Origin: Vibrio aerogenes
GTDB taxonomy: Bacteria > Pseudomonadota > Gammaproteobacteria > Enterobacterales > Vibrionaceae
DNA length: 64,000 bases
Assembly: GCF_024346755.1 (NCBI RefSeq)
Contig: NZ_AP024862.1
Span: 62,001 to 126,000, forward strand
Reading direction: 5' to 3'
A program made the position numbers and the translations under genes. How positions within the stretch are numbered: position 1 is the stretch's first letter; each line of letters begins with the position of its first letter. This document shows, piece after piece, positions 2,505 to 49,902 of this stretch. The notes under the pieces were generated by a model. It saw only the letters and a program-made list of their open reading frames with translations, did no database searches and had not been told where the DNA came from.

Positions 2505-2616
2505 GTGACCCTTTTAAGCCGAGGGTCACCTAGCCAACTGACGTTGTTAGTGAACCTGATTATTGTTCACACTGATTATCAGCCAGTCACACTATTTTTG
2601 TGACTGGCTTTTTTTA
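2505..2616 (+). ncRNA. qrr: Qrr quorum-regulatory small RNA
   Basis: Hfq-dependent Qrr RNAs act in Vibrio quorum sensing by base-pairing with target mRNAs such as the master regulator. This sequence carries the conserved Qrr core at about 2523-2554 (GGGTCACCTAGCC, then AACTGACGTTGTTAGTG). Visible structure: hairpin 1 gtgaccc/gggtcac (2505-2529); the core hairpin around CAAC-TGAC-GTTG; a gtgaac/gttcac hairpin (2550-2570); and a final terminator stem at 2581-2610 followed by a run of T. Length of about 110 nt, the sigma-54 promoter and the LuxO sites all fit the family. Which qrr paralogue it is cannot be told; its place next to a diguanylate cyclase suggests the qrr4 type. Confidence 0.92.
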
Positions 2617-2617
2617 T
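2581..2617 (+). terminator. Rho-independent terminator of qrr
   Basis: The stem AGCCAGTCAC ... GTGACTGGCT is followed by seven T. It closes the Qrr transcript and faces the converging XRE gene. Confidence 0.9.
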
Positions 2618-2638: not shown

Positions 2639-4165
2639 TTATTTCTTTTTTTCCTTGCCGGACTCATAACAGTTTGGTGTCCGTGGACACACGCCTCCCC
2701 GTGAACATATCAGCTGTGCATCCTGTGCGATGCCCCGTTCAATCCAGTTGATATTCAGTATTTTTGCAATGGTTGTTAATCGTTGATGGATCGGCTCCGG
2801 GATTTTTGCACCGCCGCCGCCATGGATGCAGGCTTCTTTGAGGGATGATGCAATCTGCAAAGCATCCCAGCCCTGCGCTTCCAGTGCCGGGTTTAAATCA
2901 ATTCCGGCACAGAGCACTCTTGAATTGCCCGCTGGATCGGTCACATTCACTGATTCACAGCAGTAAATTCGGGGTTCATCACCGACATTCAGCAAAGATA
3001 TTTGGGCTGAGCTGCCAGCTTTGGGAGTGGCGAGCTGGCGGAACACAGCCCAGTGCTGACAAGGATCTTTCACTTTTCTCATATTCCCCCAGGGCAGTGG
3101 GATGCCATTGCCTCTGTACACGGCTTTGAGTTTGCCTTCACCATAGGCATCAAAGTAATGCCAGTAAGGATAGGGAGAAACGGCGGTCATCCGCCTCATG
3201 GCAACAGAAGGTGAAACCCCGACTTTTTCATGCACCGATATTTCGTATCCGTTCCGGTCCAGCAGCTGGCGAAAGGGCACTTTGGGGCATAATAAGGCAC
3301 CGGCAAAGAAACTGGATTCAAAGTCACGCCATGCTTTGAGCATGTCAATTGAGTTAATATCGTAATTTTGTGCTTCACCGTAAGCTTCTTCCCAGCTGTT
3401 GGTGTGCCCGATCGAAAGTACGGTTTTACAGCCTTCTTTACTGTGCAGGATGTTATGCCCGATATACACAGCTAAATCGTATTTTATCCGGGTCGGATAG
3501 GGTTTCATCAATTCATTGAGGTAGATGGAACCGGGTGGTTCAAAATATGAGGTCACCAGTCTGTTTGCTTTGAGCCCAAGCTCGTCCCGGATCTCGGTTG
3601 AAGCTTCTGAAAACCAGTGAATCCTTAATCCGAGATGATGGGCGATATCGATCAGATCTTCGACCGTCAGATTAAGCTGCTTCTGACCAATGTTCTCAGC
3701 GGCACGTTCCAGATCAGGAAAATGATTTTTCAGGCTCTCCTGATGCGCCCGGATAAGCAGTTGTGCAAACTGCCTGCCGGAAATACCTGTCTGAGACAGC
3801 ATCTCCGGAATTGCAATTTGCAGGATTTCTTCCGAAAACAGAAAACCAGGCTCAAGTGCCATCCCGGTAATCCCGCCACGGCTGCCTTTATTTGGTGTAA
3901 TATCAACAGCTTCCGGCTGATCATCCAGAAACCAGTTTGGATCTTTCTGGAATACCTGAGCAATCACTTTCAGCATTTCAATGCTGGGTACCCGCTTGCC
4001 GCGTTCTATCATTGACAGATAAGAAACCGAAGGGGCGTACTCAGGATTGATCCGGATACACCGTGCAGATAAATCTTCCATCGTCAGATGATTTCGCTTT
4101 CTTAAGTTTCGTACTTTTGTACCCAGAAAATGAGACTGACGAATAATACTCTTTGATAAGGCCAT
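2639..4165 (-). CDS. XRE-family regulator with a C-terminal ScfR/DUF3612-like domain
   Basis: This is a 508-residue DNA-binding protein. Residues about 14-70 form an XRE/Cro helix-turn-helix (RNLRKRNHLTMEDLSARC, then PSVSYLSMIERGKRVPS). The long remainder resembles the short-chain acyl-CoA regulator group (ScfR-like, with an IrrE-like middle). Its tail is Cys-rich (CSRGGVCPRTPNC), as is common in that group. Relatives control glyoxylate, acetate or propionate metabolism, but none of those genes is nearby, so the target is unknown. It is divergent from the gene at 4322, with a 156-bp shared promoter region. The 3' end converges on the qrr terminator. Confidence 0.8.
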   Translation of the reverse strand: MALSKSIIRQSHFLGTKVRNLRKRNHLTMEDLSARCIRINPEYAPSVSYLSMIERGKRVPSIEMLKVIAQVFQKDPNWFLDDQPEAVDITPNKGSRGGITGMALEPGFLFSEEILQIAIPEMLSQTGISGRQFAQLLIRAHQESLKNHFPDLERAAENIGQKQLNLTVEDLIDIAHHLGLRIHWFSEASTEIRDELGLKANRLVTSYFEPPGSIYLNELMKPYPTRIKYDLAVYIGHNILHSKEGCKTVLSIGHTNSWEEAYGEAQNYDINSIDMLKAWRDFESSFFAGALLCPKVPFRQLLDRNGYEISVHEKVGVSPSVAMRRMTAVSPYPYWHYFDAYGEGKLKAVYRGNGIPLPWGNMRKVKDPCQHWAVFRQLATPKAGSSAQISLLNVGDEPRIYCCESVNVTDPAGNSRVLCAGIDLNPALEAQGWDALQIASSLKEACIHGGGGAKIPEPIHQRLTTIAKILNINWIERGIAQDAQLICSRGGVCPRTPNCYESGKEKKK

Positions 4166-21447: not shown

Positions 21448-21481
21448 AAAAAATAGCCAACCCGGAGGCTGGCTATTTCTG
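21448..21481 (-). terminator. Terminator of the cold-shock gene
   Basis: On the minus strand, AAATAGCCAgcc ... ggTTGGCTATTT is a strong stem with a following T run, about 20 nt after the stop codon. Confidence 0.85.
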
Positions 21482-21498
21482 ATAATTCGAGTTATTGC

Positions 21499-21708
21499 TT
21501 ACAGAACTTTGATCTGTTCAGCCTGAGGACCTTTTTGACCCTGAGACACGACAAACTCAACAGTCTGACCTTCTGTCAGAGTGCGAAAACCATCACCTTG
21601 AATTGCACTGAAGTGTGCGAACACATCTGGACCATTTTCTTGCTGGATAAAACCAAAACCTTTAGTTTCGTTGAACCACTTGACAGTGCCAGTCACTGTA
21701 TTAGACAT
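21499..21708 (-). CDS. CspA-family cold shock protein
   Basis: A 69-residue single-stranded nucleic-acid-binding protein that acts as an RNA chaperone. It has the canonical motifs KGFGFI (RNP1) and VFAHF (RNP2) after [12 protein letters not shown]. An AGGAAAT Shine-Dalgarno precedes the ATG. It has a long 5' leader of about 140 nt (21709-21849), as in cold-induced csp genes where the leader acts as a thermosensor. Confidence 0.95.
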
Positions 21709-21855
21709 AATTATTTCCTGGTAAATCTAAGTAAAACTAAGCCATTACGGCCATAATAGCGTGGAAAAGTAAGATGAGTACGAACGACCGGGGAGTAACG
21801 AATAATCCAACAAGACGTATGGTAACCAACGGACTGCTTCCTAGCTGTACATTTG

Positions 21856-27357: not shown

Positions 27358-27422
27358 GCTGAGAAAACCCCCAGCTAGGCTGGGGGTTCCGTAAAGCTTT
27401 AAGCTATGAGTCAGTTATAAAA

Positions 27423-27490
27423 CCCCTTTCAATTTGTTAAAACACCTTGCGGTCTGGCAACTGCAAAAGTTAAACAAAAATTGAAAGGGG
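27423..27490 (+). promoter_or_regulatory. Stem sequestering the tnpA Shine-Dalgarno
   Basis: The 13-base cccctttcaattt (27423-27435) is perfectly complementary to aaattgaaagggg (27478-27490), which contains the GGGGG ribosome-binding site before the ATG at 27497. This is the known IS200 device that keeps transposase translation low. Confidence 0.85.
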
Positions 27491-32652: not shown

Positions 32653-32787
32653 AAGTGCCTCCTATGTCATCGAGAAACGATCACAACTCAGAGGTGCTAA
32701 GAATGGGTGGTGAACTGGAGCGAGGTTAGGACTACCGTGACATAGGAAACGGCCTGACCGAAGTCAGCCTCACGCCCAGCTCACCAT
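32653..32787 (-). promoter_or_regulatory. Structured 5' leader RNA with sequestered ribosome-binding site
   Basis: On the minus strand three helices are visible. P1 pairs GGUGAGCUGG (32785-32776) with CCAGUUCACC (32718-32709). P2 is a perfect GGCUGAC-UUCG-GUCAGGCC-type hairpin (32769-32751). P3 pairs CCUAUGUCA (32746-32738) with UGACAUAGG (32669-32661), which overlaps the AGGAGG site. P1 and P3 interlock, so they form a pseudoknot or exclude each other. The one non-Watson-Crick pair of P1 is G-U on this strand but A-C on the other, which supports minus-strand transcription. It matches no riboswitch class that I know. Confidence 0.65.
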
Positions 32788-32793
32788 AATTTG

Positions 32794-43637: not shown

Positions 43638-45002
43638 ATGGCGATGCATTTACCAACAGACACGGACGATATTCTTCATGCAGATGAGCATCTGATTCAG
43701 TCTTTCGCTGATCTAAACGACTTAAAAAATAAAGACGCACTGACGGTCGTTACGGCGGCCGAAGGCTATTACGTCACAGAGAGTAACGGAAACCAGCTGA
43801 TCGATGGCATTGGCGGGTTATGGTGTGTCAATGTCGGGCATAAGCGTCAGGAAATTATTGATGCCATCAGCAGACAACTGAACACGCTGGATTACTATTC
43901 GACGTTTTACAATTTTACCCATCCGACAGCGGCAAAACTGGCCGACAAAGTGGCTCAGCTTGCTCCCGGTGATCTGAACCATGTTTATTTTGCCAATTCA
44001 GGCTCCGTTGCTAACGACTCTGCCATTCGTATCTTGCATCATTACAACAACCGTCTTGGACGGCCGCACAAGAAAAAAATACTGAGCCGTATTGGTGCTT
44101 ATCACGGCTCTACACATCTTTCTGTCGCCATGACAACCCCGGCTTACAGCAAAGGCTGGGACAGTGCATCGGAGTTAGTGCATCACATTCAGTGCCCGCA
44201 TTTCTGGAAAGAAGGCGGAGAGATGACCGAAGCCGAATTTCTTGACAGTTTGGTCGACGATCTGGAAATGAACATCCACAACATCGGTGCTGAGAACATC
44301 GCAGCGTTTATTGCTGAGCCGGTGATGGGTGCTGGCGGCGTGATCATGGCGCCGCAAGGCTACCATGCCCGCATGGCAAAAGTGTGTGCCGACAATGAGA
44401 TTAAATATATTTCAGATGAAGTGGTGACGTCTTTTGGCCGGTTAGGGCACTTCTTTGCTTCAAAAGAGATGTTCGGTATTACCCCGGATATCATTACCAC
44501 GGCAAAAGGGCTGACCTCCGGATACCAGCCTTTGTCTGCAACGATTCTTTCTGATGAAATCTATGAAGTGATTTCCAGGCCCGGAGAAGTGTTTTTGCAT
44601 GGGATGACTTATTCAGGCCATCCGGCGGCAGCAGCAGCCGGATTAGCCAACATTGCGCTGATGGAGCAGGAGCGCATTCCTGAGCAGGTCAGGCATACCG
44701 GTAAAGTTTTTGAGAATTTATTAAAAACTTTAGACAGCCTTGAGCTGGTTGGGGAAGTGCGTGGCAGCCACTTTATGATCGGGATTGAGTTTATCAAAGA
44801 TAAAGCGAATAAAATCCCGTTCGCAGAGCAGGATATGGTTGGGATGAAAGTGGCACAGGCTGCGCAGAAGCGGGGACTGATCGCCCGGCCTTTAGGGAAT
44901 TGCCTGATTCTCTCGCCTCCTTTGATTCTTGATGAGCCAATCATTAACACGATTTATGAGATTCTGCGCGACAGCATCATTGAAGTGAGTGCCCGCATAT
45001 AA
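43638..45002 (+). CDS. Class III PLP-dependent aminotransferase (omega-amine:pyruvate type)
   Basis: A 454-residue enzyme that transfers an amino group from an amine or omega-amino acid to a keto acid. It has the substrate-binding LWCVNVGHKRQEI, the cofactor Asp in ISDEVVTSFGRLG and the Schiff-base Lys in TTAKGLTSGYQPL. GMTYSGHPAAAAAGLANI is typical of polyamine (SpuC/putrescine:pyruvate) aminotransferases. Substrates are inferred from the neighbours: importer, amidase and aldehyde dehydrogenase. Confidence 0.92.
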   Translation: MAMHLPTDTDDILHADEHLIQSFADLNDLKNKDALTVVTAAEGYYVTESNGNQLIDGIGGLWCVNVGHKRQEIIDAISRQLNTLDYYSTFYNFTHPTAAKLADKVAQLAPGDLNHVYFANSGSVANDSAIRILHHYNNRLGRPHKKKILSRIGAYHGSTHLSVAMTTPAYSKGWDSASELVHHIQCPHFWKEGGEMTEAEFLDSLVDDLEMNIHNIGAENIAAFIAEPVMGAGGVIMAPQGYHARMAKVCADNEIKYISDEVVTSFGRLGHFFASKEMFGITPDIITTAKGLTSGYQPLSATILSDEIYEVISRPGEVFLHGMTYSGHPAAAAAGLANIALMEQERIPEQVRHTGKVFENLLKTLDSLELVGEVRGSHFMIGIEFIKDKANKIPFAEQDMVGMKVAQAAQKRGLIARPLGNCLILSPPLILDEPIINTIYEILRDSIIEVSARI

Positions 45003-45051
45003 CCAGAGTACCGTTTTATAAGCAGCGCGTATCCAGGGTATTTTCTGAACC

Positions 45052-45080
45052 GGATATCTGGCTGTGCAAACCGCTCAGGC
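45052..45080. repeat. Short inverted relative of the 70-bp repeat
   Basis: gatatctggctgtgcaaaccgctcaggcc matches the reverse complement of the ggcttgagcggtttg...ccagatat part of copies A and B. Confidence 0.6.
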
Positions 45081-45119
45081 CTTTTCCTTTTCGTATATAA
45101 AAAGGAATACATAAGTTAC

Positions 45120-45148
45120 TTGCAAATGTTCAGGATGTCTTATACATT
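45120..45148 (+). promoter_or_regulatory. Putative promoter of the ABC-exporter leader
   Basis: TTGCAA (45120-45125), a 17-bp spacer and TACATT (45143-45148). It is moderate in quality but the only good candidate upstream of the leader peptide. Confidence 0.5.
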
Positions 45149-45227
45149 CGTTGCACTGCCATTTTGTAATGGCAAACAGATTGATTTAACCGGCTGTGTA
45201 ACAGCCAACGAAGAAGGAATTAAACCC

Positions 45228-45293
45228 ATGATGAATATCATTCTCCAAAATATGCCGCTCATGGCGACCGGCAATGGTGTGACTCACGGGTAG
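45228..45293 (+). CDS. 21-residue leader peptide of the ABC-exporter operon
   Basis: A short frame beginning with two ATG codons, with four Met in all and ending in GNGVTHG-stop. A GAAGAAGGAA Shine-Dalgarno is 8-15 nt upstream and a ggctg/cagcc hairpin (45192-45206) precedes it. The stop codon lies 13-14 nt before the first arm of an attenuator. It shows no run of one regulatory amino acid, so a drug-arrested or peptide-arrested ribosome is a more likely trigger than amino-acid starvation. It is too short for ordinary gene calling. Confidence 0.7.
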   Translation: MMNIILQNMPLMATGNGVTHG

Positions 45294-45306
45294 GAATTCA
45301 GTTTTC

Positions 45307-45392
45307 CGGCCCGTTCAACGCGGGCTGACAGATTCAGAATCTCATTCTTGTTTCTTCAATAAAAAAGCTCGCAATATTGCGGGCTTTTTTAT
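45307..45392 (+). terminator. Transcription attenuator before the ABC exporter
   Basis: Arm 1 (cggcccg, 45307-45313) pairs with arm 2 (cgggctg, 45321-45327). Arm 3 (agctcgcaa, 45366-45374) pairs with arm 4 (ttgcgggct, 45377-45385), and six T complete a terminator. Arm 2 (gcgggct, 45320-45326) can instead pair perfectly (one G-U) with arm 3 (agctcgc), because arms 2 and 4 share gcgggct. A ribosome halted near the end of the leader peptide would cover arm 1 and favour the 2:3 antiterminator. Confidence 0.78.
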
Positions 45393-45434
45393 TAACGTTG
45401 AAAGCCCGCATCATCAATCAAGGAAGGATATGCG

Positions 45435-47267
45435 GTGAATTCATCGAAACATCCGAACCAGTTTTTACTTGAACTGATTCAACAAAAAAAATGGTATTAC
45501 TCAGGCTCGGCGATTGCAGTCTCAATTGCCAGTTATTTTATGTTTCTTGGCCCGACCATCGGCCAGATTGCCATTGATACCTTACTTTCCTCCGGGCACA
45601 CAACGACACATAGTTCATTACAGTGGCTTGTGGACTGGATTGGTTCCCCCGACCGGCTCTGGCTTGCCGGTGTCGCCATCGTTGTCGTGACCGCGTTAGG
45701 CGGACTATTCATGTATCTCAAAGATTTTCTTGCCGCACGTGCGTGTGAGCAAACCGTTAAATCTTTGCGTGAACGGCTTTTCTCGCATATACATCGTCTC
45801 CCCGAACCGTATTTGAACCGGGCTGATAGTGGTGATTTGGTGCAACGCTGTACTTCAGATGTCGATACCCTGCGTGAATTTTTAACGCTACAGGTGATGG
45901 ACATGGGGAGAACCGTCATTTTGATGTGTATTGTCATCCCGCTGATGGTGATGCAATCACCGCTGATGACCGTCATCAGCTTATGCCTGATGCCTGTTGT
46001 TTTCACTTTTGCATGGCAGTTTTTCCGCAAAGTGAAAGCCATGTTCCAGCTGGTGGATGAAGCGGAAGGTCATCTGACAACCATCGTGCAGGAGAACCTG
46101 ACCGGAATTCGGGTCGTACGTGCTTTCGCCCGTCAGGCTTATGAGTGTGAGAAATTTGATCAGAGCAACCGGACTTACAGCGACTTAAATCTGAAGCTGA
46201 TGCGGTTACTGGCCAGGTTTTGGGCGACGTCGAGCCTGCTTTGCGTGACACAAAACGGCATTGTGCTGGTCGGTGGTGCGTGGATGGCGGCACACGGTCA
46301 TATCAGCGTCGGCACCTACTTCGCCTTTATCGGCTATGCGATCCTGCTGATCTGGCCTATTCGTCAGCTGGGTCAACAACTGAGTGAAGCCGGGAAAGCC
46401 ACGGTTGCAATTGGCTGGATGCAGGAAATTCTGTCTGTCCCGGAAGAGCAACCCGTGGATGAAGAGCAGATTCTGCCTGAAAATTTCACACCGGGGATTG
46501 TTTTCGACAGGGTCAGTTTTGCCTATGACGCGGACTCATCTGCCTCTGAAGCCGATCAACATGCACTGAAGGATGTCACCTTCAACATTGACCCCGGTGA
46601 AACGATCGCCATTGTCGGGCCGACCGGTGCCGGAAAAAGCACACTGGTGCAACTGTTAATGCGGCTTCAGGATTACCGGCAAGGTTCCATTCAACTGGGC
46701 GGCTATGAACTTAATCAGCTCACGCGACACAGTGTTCGTCAACATATCGGCGCACTGTTACAAGAGCCGTTTCTTTACAGCCGGAGCCTGCGGGACAACA
46801 TCAAATTGGGCCGGGCAGCAGCGACCGATCCGGAGATGATTCAGGCGTCTGTTGATGCGGCGGTGCATCACACCATTGAACGGTTCACCAAACAATACGA
46901 TACCGTGATTGGTGAGCGTGGTGTGAGTTTAAGCGGCGGGCAAAAGCAACGGATGACTCTGTCCCGAACCTTGTTGAGAGACACGCCGATCCTTGTGCTG
47001 GACGATACCCTCAGCGCCGTCGATTCAAAAACAGAGCAAGAGATTATCCGTGCCCTGCATCAGAAAAAGGGTCAGCAAACTCTGCTGATCATCACCCACA
47101 GGATCAGTGTGTGCCGCCACGCAGACCGGGTCTTTGTGATGGAAGGCGGGCGGCTGACCGCTCAGGGAACACATGCTGATGTTGAAGCAAACAATCATTT
47201 CTATCGTCAGCTATGGAAGATTCAAAGTCACCAGCAAGCCGATTTTGAATCAGAACTGGCCGTTTAG
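45435..47267 (+). CDS. ABC exporter half-transporter, MdlA-like (degenerate Walker B)
   Basis: A 610-residue half-transporter with about six transmembrane helices (residues 20-310) and a nucleotide-binding domain (about 345-585). Walker A is GPTGAGKS, the signature is LSGGQKQR and the H-loop is IITHR. Walker B reads LVLDDTLSAVDS, with Asp where the catalytic Glu normally stands, the mark of the inactive ATP site in heterodimeric exporters. The start is a GTG behind an AAGGAAGGA Shine-Dalgarno. The partner gene starts 9 bp after its stop. The substrate is unknown; drugs or peptides are likely. Confidence 0.93.
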   Translation: MNSSKHPNQFLLELIQQKKWYYSGSAIAVSIASYFMFLGPTIGQIAIDTLLSSGHTTTHSSLQWLVDWIGSPDRLWLAGVAIVVVTALGGLFMYLKDFLAARACEQTVKSLRERLFSHIHRLPEPYLNRADSGDLVQRCTSDVDTLREFLTLQVMDMGRTVILMCIVIPLMVMQSPLMTVISLCLMPVVFTFAWQFFRKVKAMFQLVDEAEGHLTTIVQENLTGIRVVRAFARQAYECEKFDQSNRTYSDLNLKLMRLLARFWATSSLLCVTQNGIVLVGGAWMAAHGHISVGTYFAFIGYAILLIWPIRQLGQQLSEAGKATVAIGWMQEILSVPEEQPVDEEQILPENFTPGIVFDRVSFAYDADSSASEADQHALKDVTFNIDPGETIAIVGPTGAGKSTLVQLLMRLQDYRQGSIQLGGYELNQLTRHSVRQHIGALLQEPFLYSRSLRDNIKLGRAAATDPEMIQASVDAAVHHTIERFTKQYDTVIGERGVSLSGGQKQRMTLSRTLLRDTPILVLDDTLSAVDSKTEQEIIRALHQKKGQQTLLIITHRISVCRHADRVFVMEGGRLTAQGTHADVEANNHFYRQLWKIQSHQQADFESELAV

Positions 47268-47275
47268 AGGCATTT

Positions 47276-49105
47276 ATGAACCAATATGATAACAACACAC
47301 CGGTACAGAACGGTGCATGGAAAACCTTATTTCAGATGATTTATCAGCCGGAAAAGCGTTTGTTTCACCGGTTAATTGTGGTCGCGCTGTTTACGGCTAT
47401 CGTCGATGCCAGTTTCACGCTGGTAACCAAGGCCATCGTCGATGACATTGTGGCACTCGGCCCTGACATTGAGCTCCTTTCCTATGGATTGATTTTTGCC
47501 GGACTGACTGTGTCCATTGCGGCTTCGATCTGGTGCTTTATTCGTTTGGCCGGGCAGCTATCAACACGCCTGATGTACCGGCTGCGTAAAGAGAGCTTTG
47601 AACATTTACAGACCTTGTCGTTTCGTTTCTTTGATCAAAATGCCGTCGGTTGGTTGCTGGCCCGGATCACGTCAGACACAAACCGGATAGCCAATGTGAT
47701 TGCCTGGGGCACGCTCGATTTATGCTGGGGCGTTCCGTTTCTCATCGGGATCTTTGTGGTGCTGCTGGTTTTGAACTGGCAGTTGGGCCTCATCGTACTG
47801 GCGTTGGTGCCGGTTTTGCTGGCCGTGGCCGTGTGGTTTAACCTGAAAATTCTCGACAGTTCCCGGAAACTGCGCCAAACCAACAGCCGGATCACGGCGA
47901 TTTACAACGAAAGTCTGTCCGGTGTGCAGACCAGCAAAGTCTTGGGCCGCGAGGATGAGAACCTGCATGAGTTTCAAAGTGATACCCGGAAAATCTATTT
48001 CCAGTCGATGCAAAACTTACTGCTGACTTCGGCGTTTTATCCGTTTGTGAATGTGTTTGTGTCGGTCTCCACCGGCATCGCACTCTGGCTCGGTGGTGCA
48101 GATGTTCTGGCAGGGACACTCACCCTCGGTACGCTGGTTGCTTTTATGAGTTATACCCGCTCCCTGATGGACCCGATGCTGGAGGTTTCCGGCAAACTTG
48201 CAGAGTTACAACGGGCGACTGCCAGTGTCGAACGGGTGATAGGCTTATTGCAGGTCACTCCGGAGATTCAGGATTCTGATACTGTGCTGGCGAGCATTCA
48301 GCAGGCAACAGATGCCGGTCATGCCGTGATTGATGGCGGCGATGACCTGATTGAGACGATTGAATTCAGGGATGTTTCTTTTGGCTATAAACCGGAAGAA
48401 ACAGTGTTGAAACGATTTAACCTGCGGGTGAACAAAGGGGAAACCATTGCGCTTGTCGGTGCCACCGGCTCAGGAAAATCGACCATCATCAGCCTGTTAT
48501 GCCGCTTTTATGAACCCAGTGCCGGGGAGATTTTGCTGAACGGGACGGATTATCGTCAGCGCAGTCTGGCATGGTTGCAATCAAACCTTGGCATTGTGCA
48601 ACAAACGCCGTTTCTGTTTACCGGCACAATTCGCTCGAACATTCGTTATGGCAATCTGGACGCCACGGATGCGGAGATTGAAGCGGCGGCTAAAGCCGTG
48701 AACCTGCATGACTTTATTCTGCAAATGGAAAACGGCTACGAGACGGCAGTTCAGGAAGGCGGAAACAACCTCTCCACCGGGCAAAAGCAGTTGATTTCCT
48801 TTGCGCGGGCGGTGGTCGCCGACCCTCAGATTCTGGTCATGGATGAAGCAACTTCTTCTGTGGATACGCAAACAGAGCACGTGCTGCAACACAGCTTGCA
48901 ACAGGTCTTGCACGGCCGGACCAGCTTTGTCGTTGCGCACCGCCTGTCCACCATCCGTGCGGCAGACCGGATTCTGGTGATCGATCAGGGCGAACTGAAA
49001 GAGCAGGGCAGTCATGAGATGTTGATTGCACAACAAGGCCGGTATTACGAGTTGTACCGCAAGCAATTTCAGTCTGAGGCGGAATCAGCGGTGACAGGCA
49101 CATAA
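47276..49105 (+). CDS. ABC exporter half-transporter, MdlB-like (catalytic partner)
   Basis: A 609-residue half-transporter with six predicted helices and a nucleotide-binding domain. Walker A is GATGSGKS, the signature is LSTGQKQL (not the usual LSGGQ) and Walker B is LVMDEATSSVDT with the catalytic Glu, then the His switch VVAHRLSTI. Paired with the preceding protein, it forms one canonical and one degenerate ATP site, as in BmrCD, TM287/288 and MdlAB. Expression is probably under the upstream attenuator. Confidence 0.93.
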   Translation: MNQYDNNTPVQNGAWKTLFQMIYQPEKRLFHRLIVVALFTAIVDASFTLVTKAIVDDIVALGPDIELLSYGLIFAGLTVSIAASIWCFIRLAGQLSTRLMYRLRKESFEHLQTLSFRFFDQNAVGWLLARITSDTNRIANVIAWGTLDLCWGVPFLIGIFVVLLVLNWQLGLIVLALVPVLLAVAVWFNLKILDSSRKLRQTNSRITAIYNESLSGVQTSKVLGREDENLHEFQSDTRKIYFQSMQNLLLTSAFYPFVNVFVSVSTGIALWLGGADVLAGTLTLGTLVAFMSYTRSLMDPMLEVSGKLAELQRATASVERVIGLLQVTPEIQDSDTVLASIQQATDAGHAVIDGGDDLIETIEFRDVSFGYKPEETVLKRFNLRVNKGETIALVGATGSGKSTIISLLCRFYEPSAGEILLNGTDYRQRSLAWLQSNLGIVQQTPFLFTGTIRSNIRYGNLDATDAEIEAAAKAVNLHDFILQMENGYETAVQEGGNNLSTGQKQLISFARAVVADPQILVMDEATSSVDTQTEHVLQHSLQQVLHGRTSFVVAHRLSTIRAADRILVIDQGELKEQGSHEMLIAQQGRYYELYRKQFQSEAESAVTGT

Positions 49106-49242: not shown

Positions 49243-49902
49243 ATGAATCAATTTATTCTGTTATTTTTCCTTTTATGCGCTTTCAGCCTTTGTGCTGTCG
49301 CGGGAATGAACACAAAGCGGATAGCTTTGCCTTATTTGCATTCTCAATCTGGTCTCAGTCAGTTTGTTCAGCTGGTTGATAAAAATAGCGACCACCGTCC
49401 ATTGATTCAGTTAATCGATGATTATCAACAGATGGATGCCATGACTTTTTATCGTCATTACAACCAAAAGTTGCAGTTAGATGACTGTTTTGATGAAAGT
49501 GAATATGCAGAAGAGATAGAAGATGGAGAAGATTACTTAGCGCTGATGATGATTTTCTTTTTGCAGGAAGACAATCAGTTATTGCAACTCGACTGGAAAG
49601 GAGAAGAGGAAGAGTATCAAACCGTTCATTTTATCAATCGTATTTTGCGGGACTATTTTCATCAAAATGATGCCGTCAATGCCCAGTCTGTTGAACAAGC
49701 AATGCAGCCTGATGATGATATTCTGGTGTTATTGAAAATTGTCGACCGGAAGCTGAAAGCCAGAGGGTATCGTCTGGTTAATTTTGATACCGGTAGCGAT
49801 CAGTATTACATCGGTGTCTTTCCTGAACCTACAGCCAGAAAGCTGGAACAGCAGAAGGTGAATCAGCTTGAAATCACGATAGTCTCCCGGTTTGAAGATT
49901 AA
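49243..49902 (+). CDS. Unknown acidic protein
   Basis: A 219-residue protein, not recognised. It begins with a hydrophobic stretch (MNQFILLFFLLCAFSLCAVAG) that looks like a signal peptide or anchor, followed by an acidic helical body (DDCFDESEYAEEIEDGEDYLALMMIFFLQEDNQ). A second Met at residue 22 could be the start of a cytoplasmic form. An out-of-frame ATG at 49209 has the better Shine-Dalgarno (AGGAAGAG) and overlaps the N-terminus, so either translational coupling or an N-terminal frameshift is possible. Confidence 0.55.
   Translation: MNQFILLFFLLCAFSLCAVAGMNTKRIALPYLHSQSGLSQFVQLVDKNSDHRPLIQLIDDYQQMDAMTFYRHYNQKLQLDDCFDESEYAEEIEDGEDYLALMMIFFLQEDNQLLQLDWKGEEEEYQTVHFINRILRDYFHQNDAVNAQSVEQAMQPDDDILVLLKIVDRKLKARGYRLVNFDTGSDQYYIGVFPEPTARKLEQQKVNQLEITIVSRFED

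What the first reader, a model, noticed from the sequence alone, without database searches (positions are those of the whole stretch)
45120..45434. Leader peptide and 1-2-3-4 attenuator controlling a heterodimeric ABC exporter
A 21-codon frame with a good ribosome site ends 13-14 nt before arm 1 of a nested hairpin set. Arms 2 and 4 share gcgggct, so arm 3 (agctcgc) can pair with either; the 3:4 pairing is followed by six T. This is the classic geometry of ribosome-mediated attenuation. The peptide has no run of one amino acid, so drug-induced or peptide-induced stalling is the likely trigger, as for BmrB upstream of BmrCD in Bacillus (established knowledge). I know of no such device described for a Vibrio MdlAB-type pair.
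Basis: partly seen in the sequence, partly recalled or inferred. Interest (0 to 1): 0.8.

Follow-up and report, generated by a model that had tools for sequence, protein, structure and literature searches.

The report
Ribosome-controlled switch before exporter genes
Just before a pair of exporter genes lie a tiny gene and a set of RNA segments that can fold in two ways, so that where a ribosome pauses on the tiny gene probably decides whether the exporter is made; a distantly related bacterium has the same arrangement.

Summary
In detail: a 21-codon frame with a ribosome site (45228-45293), arms 1-4 and a T6 terminator precede an ABC exporter pair. Three things change the picture. (1) The exporter is not MdlAB/SmdAB but a patchy family: only the window's own genome among 227 of the genus, one further genome among 394 of the order. 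(2) That genome, G680, has the same leader-plus-arms layout, although the peptides are not detectably alike and its upstream gene is divergent. (3) The proposed mechanism needs correction: a ribosome at the leader stop does not reach arm 1. An overlooked segment 0 at the leader's end can pair with arm 1. Masked folding favours 0:1 plus 2:3 (antiterminator) for some ribosome positions within the leader, and 1:2 (leaving 3:4, the terminator) when segment 0 is covered; strongly in the window, partly in G680. The layout arose in 0 of 3000 and 2 of 3000 shuffles (rules post hoc). Against: the finished terminator always wins at equilibrium, so read-through must be kinetic; no good promoter was found; trigger and function are untested. 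Verdict: probably a real ribosome-mediated attenuator.

The parts
45120..45148 (+). weak promoter-like site TTGCAA-17-TACATT
   Evidence: 8 of 12 consensus letters; the stricter scan found no promoter in 44900-45500
45211..45219 (+). ribosome site of the leader, AAGAAGGAA
   Evidence: sequence
45224..45227 (+). ACCC before the leader start, predicted to pair with GGGT of segment 0 when no ribosome is present
   Evidence: minimum-energy fold
45228..45293 (+). leader ORF, 21 codons, MMNIILQNMPLMATGNGVTHG, stop TAG 45291-45293
   Evidence: sequence; an 18-codon ORF at the same place in G680
45286..45291 (+). segment 0 (ACGGGT), can pair with arm 1
   Evidence: masked folding; counterpart TAGGGC just after the stop in G680
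45308..45314 (+). arm 1 (GGCCCGT), pairs with segment 0 or arm 2
45320..45326 (+). arm 2 (GCGGGCT), pairs with arm 1 or arm 3
45366..45372 (+). arm 3 (AGCTCGC), pairs with arm 2 or arm 4
45379..45390 (+). arm 4 (GCGGGCT) and T run: 3' half of the terminator
45401..45409 (+). arm 5 (AAAGCCCGC), complementary to arms 2 and 4; role unclear
   Evidence: predicted 4:5 occupancy 0.00 in the window, but 2:5 up to 0.60 with the ribosome on codon 1
45435..47267 (+). first ABC exporter half-transporter, 610 aa, degenerate catalytic site (LVLDDT)
47276..49105 (+). second ABC exporter half-transporter, 609 aa, canonical catalytic Glu (LVMDEA)

Best explanation
A ribosome-mediated transcription attenuator of a heterodimer-type ABC exporter. 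Transcription starts upstream of the leader (inferred). With free translation the ribosome reaches the leader stop and covers segment 0; arm 1 then pairs with arm 2, arm 3 is left for arm 4, and the terminator stops transcription before the exporter. If ribosomes are held inside the leader (in the window model most strongly at codons 1-2 and 13-15, weakly at 3-8, not at 9-12; in G680 anywhere before about codon 16), segment 0 is free, pairs with arm 1 and releases arm 2 to hold arm 3, so that RNA polymerase may pass before the terminator hairpin forms. Without any ribosome the window folds to the terminator, because ACCC before the start ties up segment 0, whereas G680 folds to the antiterminator. 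Shown here: the layout, its rarity in shuffles, its presence in a second genus, and the model folds. Inferred: promoter, actual read-through, and that the natural trigger is ribosome-slowing antibiotic or other translation stress rather than shortage of one amino acid.
For: Layout in the window and in G680, found by one rule set at 1 of 18 terminator-like sites of the window and 2 of 114 sites of other loci, both being the same G680 place; 0 of 3000 and 2 of 3000 shuffles reach it. Window P(2:3) 0.89 at codon 1 and 0.73-0.85 at codons 13-15 against 0.00 at codons 16-22; G680 0.90 at codons 1-15 against 0.38-0.45 at codons 17-19. The mean early-minus-late difference is reached by 1 of 150 (window) and 2 of 150 (G680) shuffles. 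In G680 the upstream gene is divergent, so the terminator there does not end a preceding co-directional gene. The gene pair is of the heterodimer type.
Against: The finished terminator wins at equilibrium for every ribosome position tried: P(3:4) 1.00 in the window, 0.76-0.87 in G680, 0.58-0.83 in G680 with a longer stretch. The window's terminator state is 6.6-11.3 kcal/mol better than a 0:1, 2:3, 4:5 state. In the window 2:3 is lost once 3-6 bases of arm 4 are exposed, so read-through needs slow refolding. In the window model codons 9-12 do not favour 2:3. The two species differ without ribosome, and G680 still keeps P(2:3) about 0.4 at the stop. The G680 leader folds only slightly better than shuffles (z -1.45; 15 of 200 as stable), and its maximum-minus-late measure is reached by 12 of 150 shuffles. 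No strong promoter. Only two loci.
Confidence: 0.6

Rival explanations
1. Classic form: a drug or the peptide holds the ribosome near the end of the leader, which covers arm 1 and frees arm 2 for arm 3.
For: Arms 1-4 exist; with the largest footprint tried (-16/+20) and the stop codon in the P site, P(2:3) becomes 0.9 in the window.
Against: With the four smaller footprints a ribosome on the last codons keeps P(2:3) at 0.0 in the window; in G680 the ribosome at the end lowers rather than raises 2:3.
Confidence: 0.12
2. A plain terminator of the upstream gene cluster, with the leader ORF and the extra arms fortuitous; the exporter is read from an unseen promoter or by leakage.
For: The aminotransferase gene 43638-45002 is co-directional and no standard terminator was listed between it and the leader. 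The short terminator sequence is common: 25 of 61 relatives have a match at E <= 0.001, and all listed matches outside the window's own place fall on the terminator part of the query.
Against: 0 of 3000 shuffles; the same layout in G680, where the upstream gene is divergent. Only 38 to 45 bases separate the T run from the exporter start, little room for a promoter.
Confidence: 0.15
3. RNA switch without ribosome sensing by position: a ligand, a protein, Rho or control of exporter translation uses the same arms.
For: Arm 5 next to the exporter ribosome site can pair with arm 2 or arm 4 (2:5 up to 0.60).
Against: No Rfam family matched here; ORF plus ribosome site are kept in G680.
Confidence: 0.07
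4. Amino-acid attenuator of the trp/his sort.
For: Alternative pairings; four Met among 21 codons in the window.
Against: No codon run in either leader, and composition differs (four Ser and two Met among 18 in G680); the target is an exporter.
Confidence: 0.03
5. The peptide itself is the product, for example an exported or signalling peptide.
For: Short ORF next to an exporter.
Against: The two peptides are not detectably related: local score reached by 1615 of 2000 shuffles, global by 117 of 2000.
Confidence: 0.03

Closest known systems
BmrB leader of bmrCD, Bacillus subtilis (PMC4191407: abstract, sections 14 and 15, first part of section 17 read)
   Same: Translated short ORF and an alternative terminator before a heterodimeric ABC exporter pair; induction there by lincomycin, erythromycin and chloramphenicol depends on translating the leader.
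   Different: There the ORF has 53 codons and holds the terminator inside its coding sequence; here 21 codons, terminator 72 nt or more behind the stop. Peptide relation not tested. Gammaproteobacterium, and no expression data.
his operon attenuator of enterobacteria (recalled, no call)
   Same: As I recall it, six segments that pair A:B, C:D, E:F (off) or B:C, D:E (on), the ribosome position deciding; the window (ACCC:0, 1:2, 3:4 against 0:1, 2:3) has the same order.
   Different: No His run, other target; in G680 the first pairing (before the start) was not seen.
PA5471.1 leader of armZ, Pseudomonas aeruginosa (PMC12057347: passages read)
   Same: Gammaproteobacterial leader peptide proposed to act by transcription attenuation under ribosome-targeting antibiotics and leading to efflux.
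   Different: Controls an anti-repressor of the RND pump MexXY, not an ABC exporter directly; the review says that the mechanism still needs confirmation.
toiL uORF of topAI, Escherichia coli (PMC12121999: abstract and section 13 read)
   Same: Short ORF sensing several classes of ribosome-targeting antibiotics by stalling at different positions.
   Different: Acts on translation of topAI and Rho-dependent termination; target is a toxin-antitoxin system.

Membership tests
ribosome-mediated transcription attenuator | leader ORF with ribosome site upstream of the regulated gene | tested here: met
ribosome-mediated transcription attenuator | intrinsic terminator and a mutually exclusive antiterminator | tested here: met
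   arm 3 pairs with arm 2 or arm 4; (tool scan did not list the terminator)
ribosome-mediated transcription attenuator | fold depends on ribosome position | tested here: met
   model folds only, before arm 4 is made. Not in the complete transcript, where 3:4 wins
ribosome-mediated transcription attenuator | translation-dependent read-through in the cell | not testable with these tools
   needs expression data
BmrB-type leader | terminator inside the coding sequence of the leader | tested here: not met
   stop at 45293, terminator stem from 45366
BmrB-type leader | peptide homology to BmrB | not tested
   BmrB sequence not fetched
amino-acid attenuator (trp, his) | run of codons for the regulating amino acid | tested here: not met
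MdlAB/SmdAB exporter | scores above the NCBIfam cut-offs of NF008055 and NF008056 | tested here: not met
   314.9 of 845 and 291.3 of 746 bits
heterodimeric ABC exporter (BmrCD, TM287/288 kind) | two adjacent half-transporters, one with a degenerate catalytic Glu | tested here: met
   LVLDDT and LVMDEA, 8 nt between the genes; both match YheI or YheH and TM0288 chains, though eukaryotic ABCB1 chains score higher; assembly itself not tested

The most novel reading that the evidence does not exclude
A patchily spread exporter family of gammaproteobacteria carries its own general translation-stress sensor: a leader whose peptide drifts freely while a domino of RNA segments (0 to 4) is kept, so that slowing of the ribosome before the leader's end, whatever the drug, opens the exporter.
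Probability: 0.3. Interest if true: 0.65.

Novelty: new variant of a known kind. Interest (0 to 1): 0.5.

Why it matters
Ribosome-mediated transcription attenuation of a multidrug ABC exporter was reported as a first for BmrCD in Bacillus (PMC4191407, abstract). A gammaproteobacterial case with another geometry, in a patchily distributed exporter family, would suggest that exporters can travel with their own sensor of translation stress, and would allow a clean test of whether the peptide or only the ribosome's position carries the signal.

Tried and rejected
Conserved arrest peptide: the two leaders do not align convincingly better than shuffles. Known RNA family: none of the 4 Rfam matches of the window lies here. 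Arm 5: predicted 4:5 occupancy is 0.00 in the window and at most 0.07 in G680, though 2:5 reaches 0.60 in the window. The constrained state energies printed for G680 used badly registered arms and are not used. Promoter: only weak matches.

More relatives with DNA: genome contigs gave one 23% match, plasmids at best 39%, viral contigs one 29% match, a class sample none but the own genome (1 of 369), the family of G680 none but G680 (1 of 12). The protein collection lists relatives of 51-76% identity, some named Reinekea, Alginatibacterium or Gynuella, but gives no DNA (the best 120 of 2889 are shown). The comparison therefore rests on two loci, and the empty samples show little.

Literature: 9 full-text searches. 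Their listings show no attenuator of a Vibrio or other gammaproteobacterial ABC exporter pair; some lists were cut to the best rows (15 of 53, 15 of 23), and the library holds openly licensed papers only.

Full report
Observation. The sequence is as described: leader ORF 45228-45293 with AAGAAGGAA at 45211-45219, arms 1 to 4 at 45308-45314, 45320-45326, 45366-45372 and 45379-45385, T6 at 45385-45390, exporter start GTG at 45435. The stretch 45220-45400 folds more stably than all of 200 dinucleotide shuffles (z -4.78). None of the 4 Rfam matches in the window lies here. The ready-made terminator scan did not list the 3:4 hairpin; folding gives it -17.8 kcal/mol.

The exporter. The two genes (610 and 609 aa) look like a heterodimeric pair: the first has Asp where the catalytic Glu is expected (LVLDDT), the second keeps Glu (LVMDEA). 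By NCBIfam they are not SmdA/SmdB: 314.9 and 291.3 bits against cut-offs of 845 and 746. The family is patchy. Among 227 genomes of the genus only the window's own matches (by DNA at E 1e-20; by protein at E 1e-100); in the order sample 2 of 394, own and G680; in the class sample 1 of 369, own. The protein collection lists relatives of 51-76% identity, some of them named Reinekea, Alginatibacterium or Gynuella. This suggests horizontal spread (inference).

A second locus. G680 holds an orthologue, 63% identical, which matches the entry named Alginatibacterium sediminis at 100% over 608 residues. Upstream of it lies an 18-codon ORF behind AAGGAG, MKLSIRMSFDAPSASNQG, then GCTGGGCCC...GGGCTTAGC (1:2), then AAGTCCG...CGGGCTTTTTT (3:4). 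Arms 2 and 4 again share CGGGCT, so arm 3 can pair with either. Its next gene upstream is divergent, so the terminator there does not end a preceding co-directional gene. The second subunit follows in G680 too (read). The whole G680 leader is only slightly more stable than shuffles (z -1.45, 15 of 200 as stable).

The missing segment. In both loci a segment at the leader's end can pair with arm 1: ACGGGT with GCCCGT in the window, TAGGGC just behind the stop with GCCCTA in G680. I masked a ribosome footprint (-12/+15 around the P site) at each codon and folded the transcript up to the end of arm 3. Window P(2:3): 0.00 without ribosome, 0.89 at codon 1, 0.57 at codon 2, 0.19-0.32 at codons 3-8, 0.00-0.17 at codons 9-12, 0.73-0.85 at codons 13-15, 0.00 at codons 16-22. 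G680: 0.90 without ribosome and at codons 1-15, 0.78 at codon 16, 0.38-0.45 at codons 17-19. In both, a ribosome that covers segment 0 lowers the antiterminator, which is the reverse of a ribosome at the leader's end opening arm 2. The trend holds for five footprints, with shifted limits; the largest (-16/+20) with the stop codon in the P site flips the window to 0.9.

Chance. With the terminator fixed and the 232 bases upstream shuffled, the full layout appears in 0 of 3000 (window) and 2 of 3000 (G680) shuffles. By the same rules it is present at 1 of 18 terminator-like sites in the window and at 2 of 114 in other loci; those two are one place of G680 held as L061 and L062. Before that count I left out L001, L031, L056, L060 and L131 (own genome), L063 (duplicate) and loci of 2000 bases or less; some remaining loci overlap, so the 114 sites are not all independent. 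In the fold test the mean early-minus-late difference is reached by 1 of 150 (window) and 2 of 150 (G680) shuffles, the maximum early value by 4 and 2, the maximum-minus-late by 0 and 12. Rules and footprints were chosen with these two loci in view.

What speaks against. The complete terminator wins at equilibrium whatever the ribosome does: P(3:4) 1.00 in the window and 0.76-0.87 in G680, 0.58-0.83 in G680 with a longer stretch. The window's 1:2, 3:4 state is 6.6-11.3 kcal/mol better than 0:1, 2:3, 4:5 in the four ribosome states tried. In the window 2:3 is lost once 3-6 bases of arm 4 are exposed; in G680 it lasts until arm 4 is nearly complete. Antitermination would be a matter of timing. 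The peptides are not alike. Only weak promoter-like sites were found. Expression was not examined.

Reading. The window's order of pairings (ACCC before the start with 0, 1:2, 3:4 against 0:1, 2:3) resembles the six-segment logic that I recall for the his operon, without a codon run, and its target resembles that of BmrB in Bacillus (PMC4191407). Related gammaproteobacterial sensors are PA5471.1/armZ (PMC12057347, passages) and toiL (PMC12121999, abstract and one section). Since the pairings recur while the peptide does not, ribosome position rather than a particular nascent chain is the likelier signal, and ribosome-slowing antibiotics are the likeliest trigger (inference, about even odds). 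Window codons 13-15 (Ala, Thr, Gly) fall where inhibitors such as chloramphenicol are said to pause after Ala or Thr (recalled); this is only a lead.

Noticed in passing
window 21448-21834 (-): Rfam match to the cspA thermoregulator, 80.4 bits against a gathering score of 78.
   Followed up: no
window 2506-2617 (+) and 27366-27487 (+): Rfam matches to the sRNAs Qrr (98.1 bits) and STnc490 (127.3 bits).
   Followed up: no
window 32703-32791 (-): Rfam match to the C4 antisense RNA (64.4 bits), which hints at a phage-derived stretch nearby (the phage link is recalled).
   Followed up: no
window 45430-45438 (+): A two-codon start-stop frame ATG CGG TGA overlaps the GTG start of the first exporter gene (read).
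   Followed up: no
window 45165-45205 (+): Two short inverted repeats (GCCATT-AATGGC and GGCTGT-ACAGCC) lie between the promoter-like site and the leader; they could be operators or stabilising hairpins (read).
   Followed up: no
window 49243-49902 (+): A 219-aa frame behind the exporter pair matches no NCBIfam family at E 0.001.
   Followed up: partly
L061 about 3515-3620, minus strand: In G680 TTGCAA also stands about 110 nt before the leader start, as in the window (108 nt), but its -10 part is poor and it did not pass the scan.
   Followed up: partly
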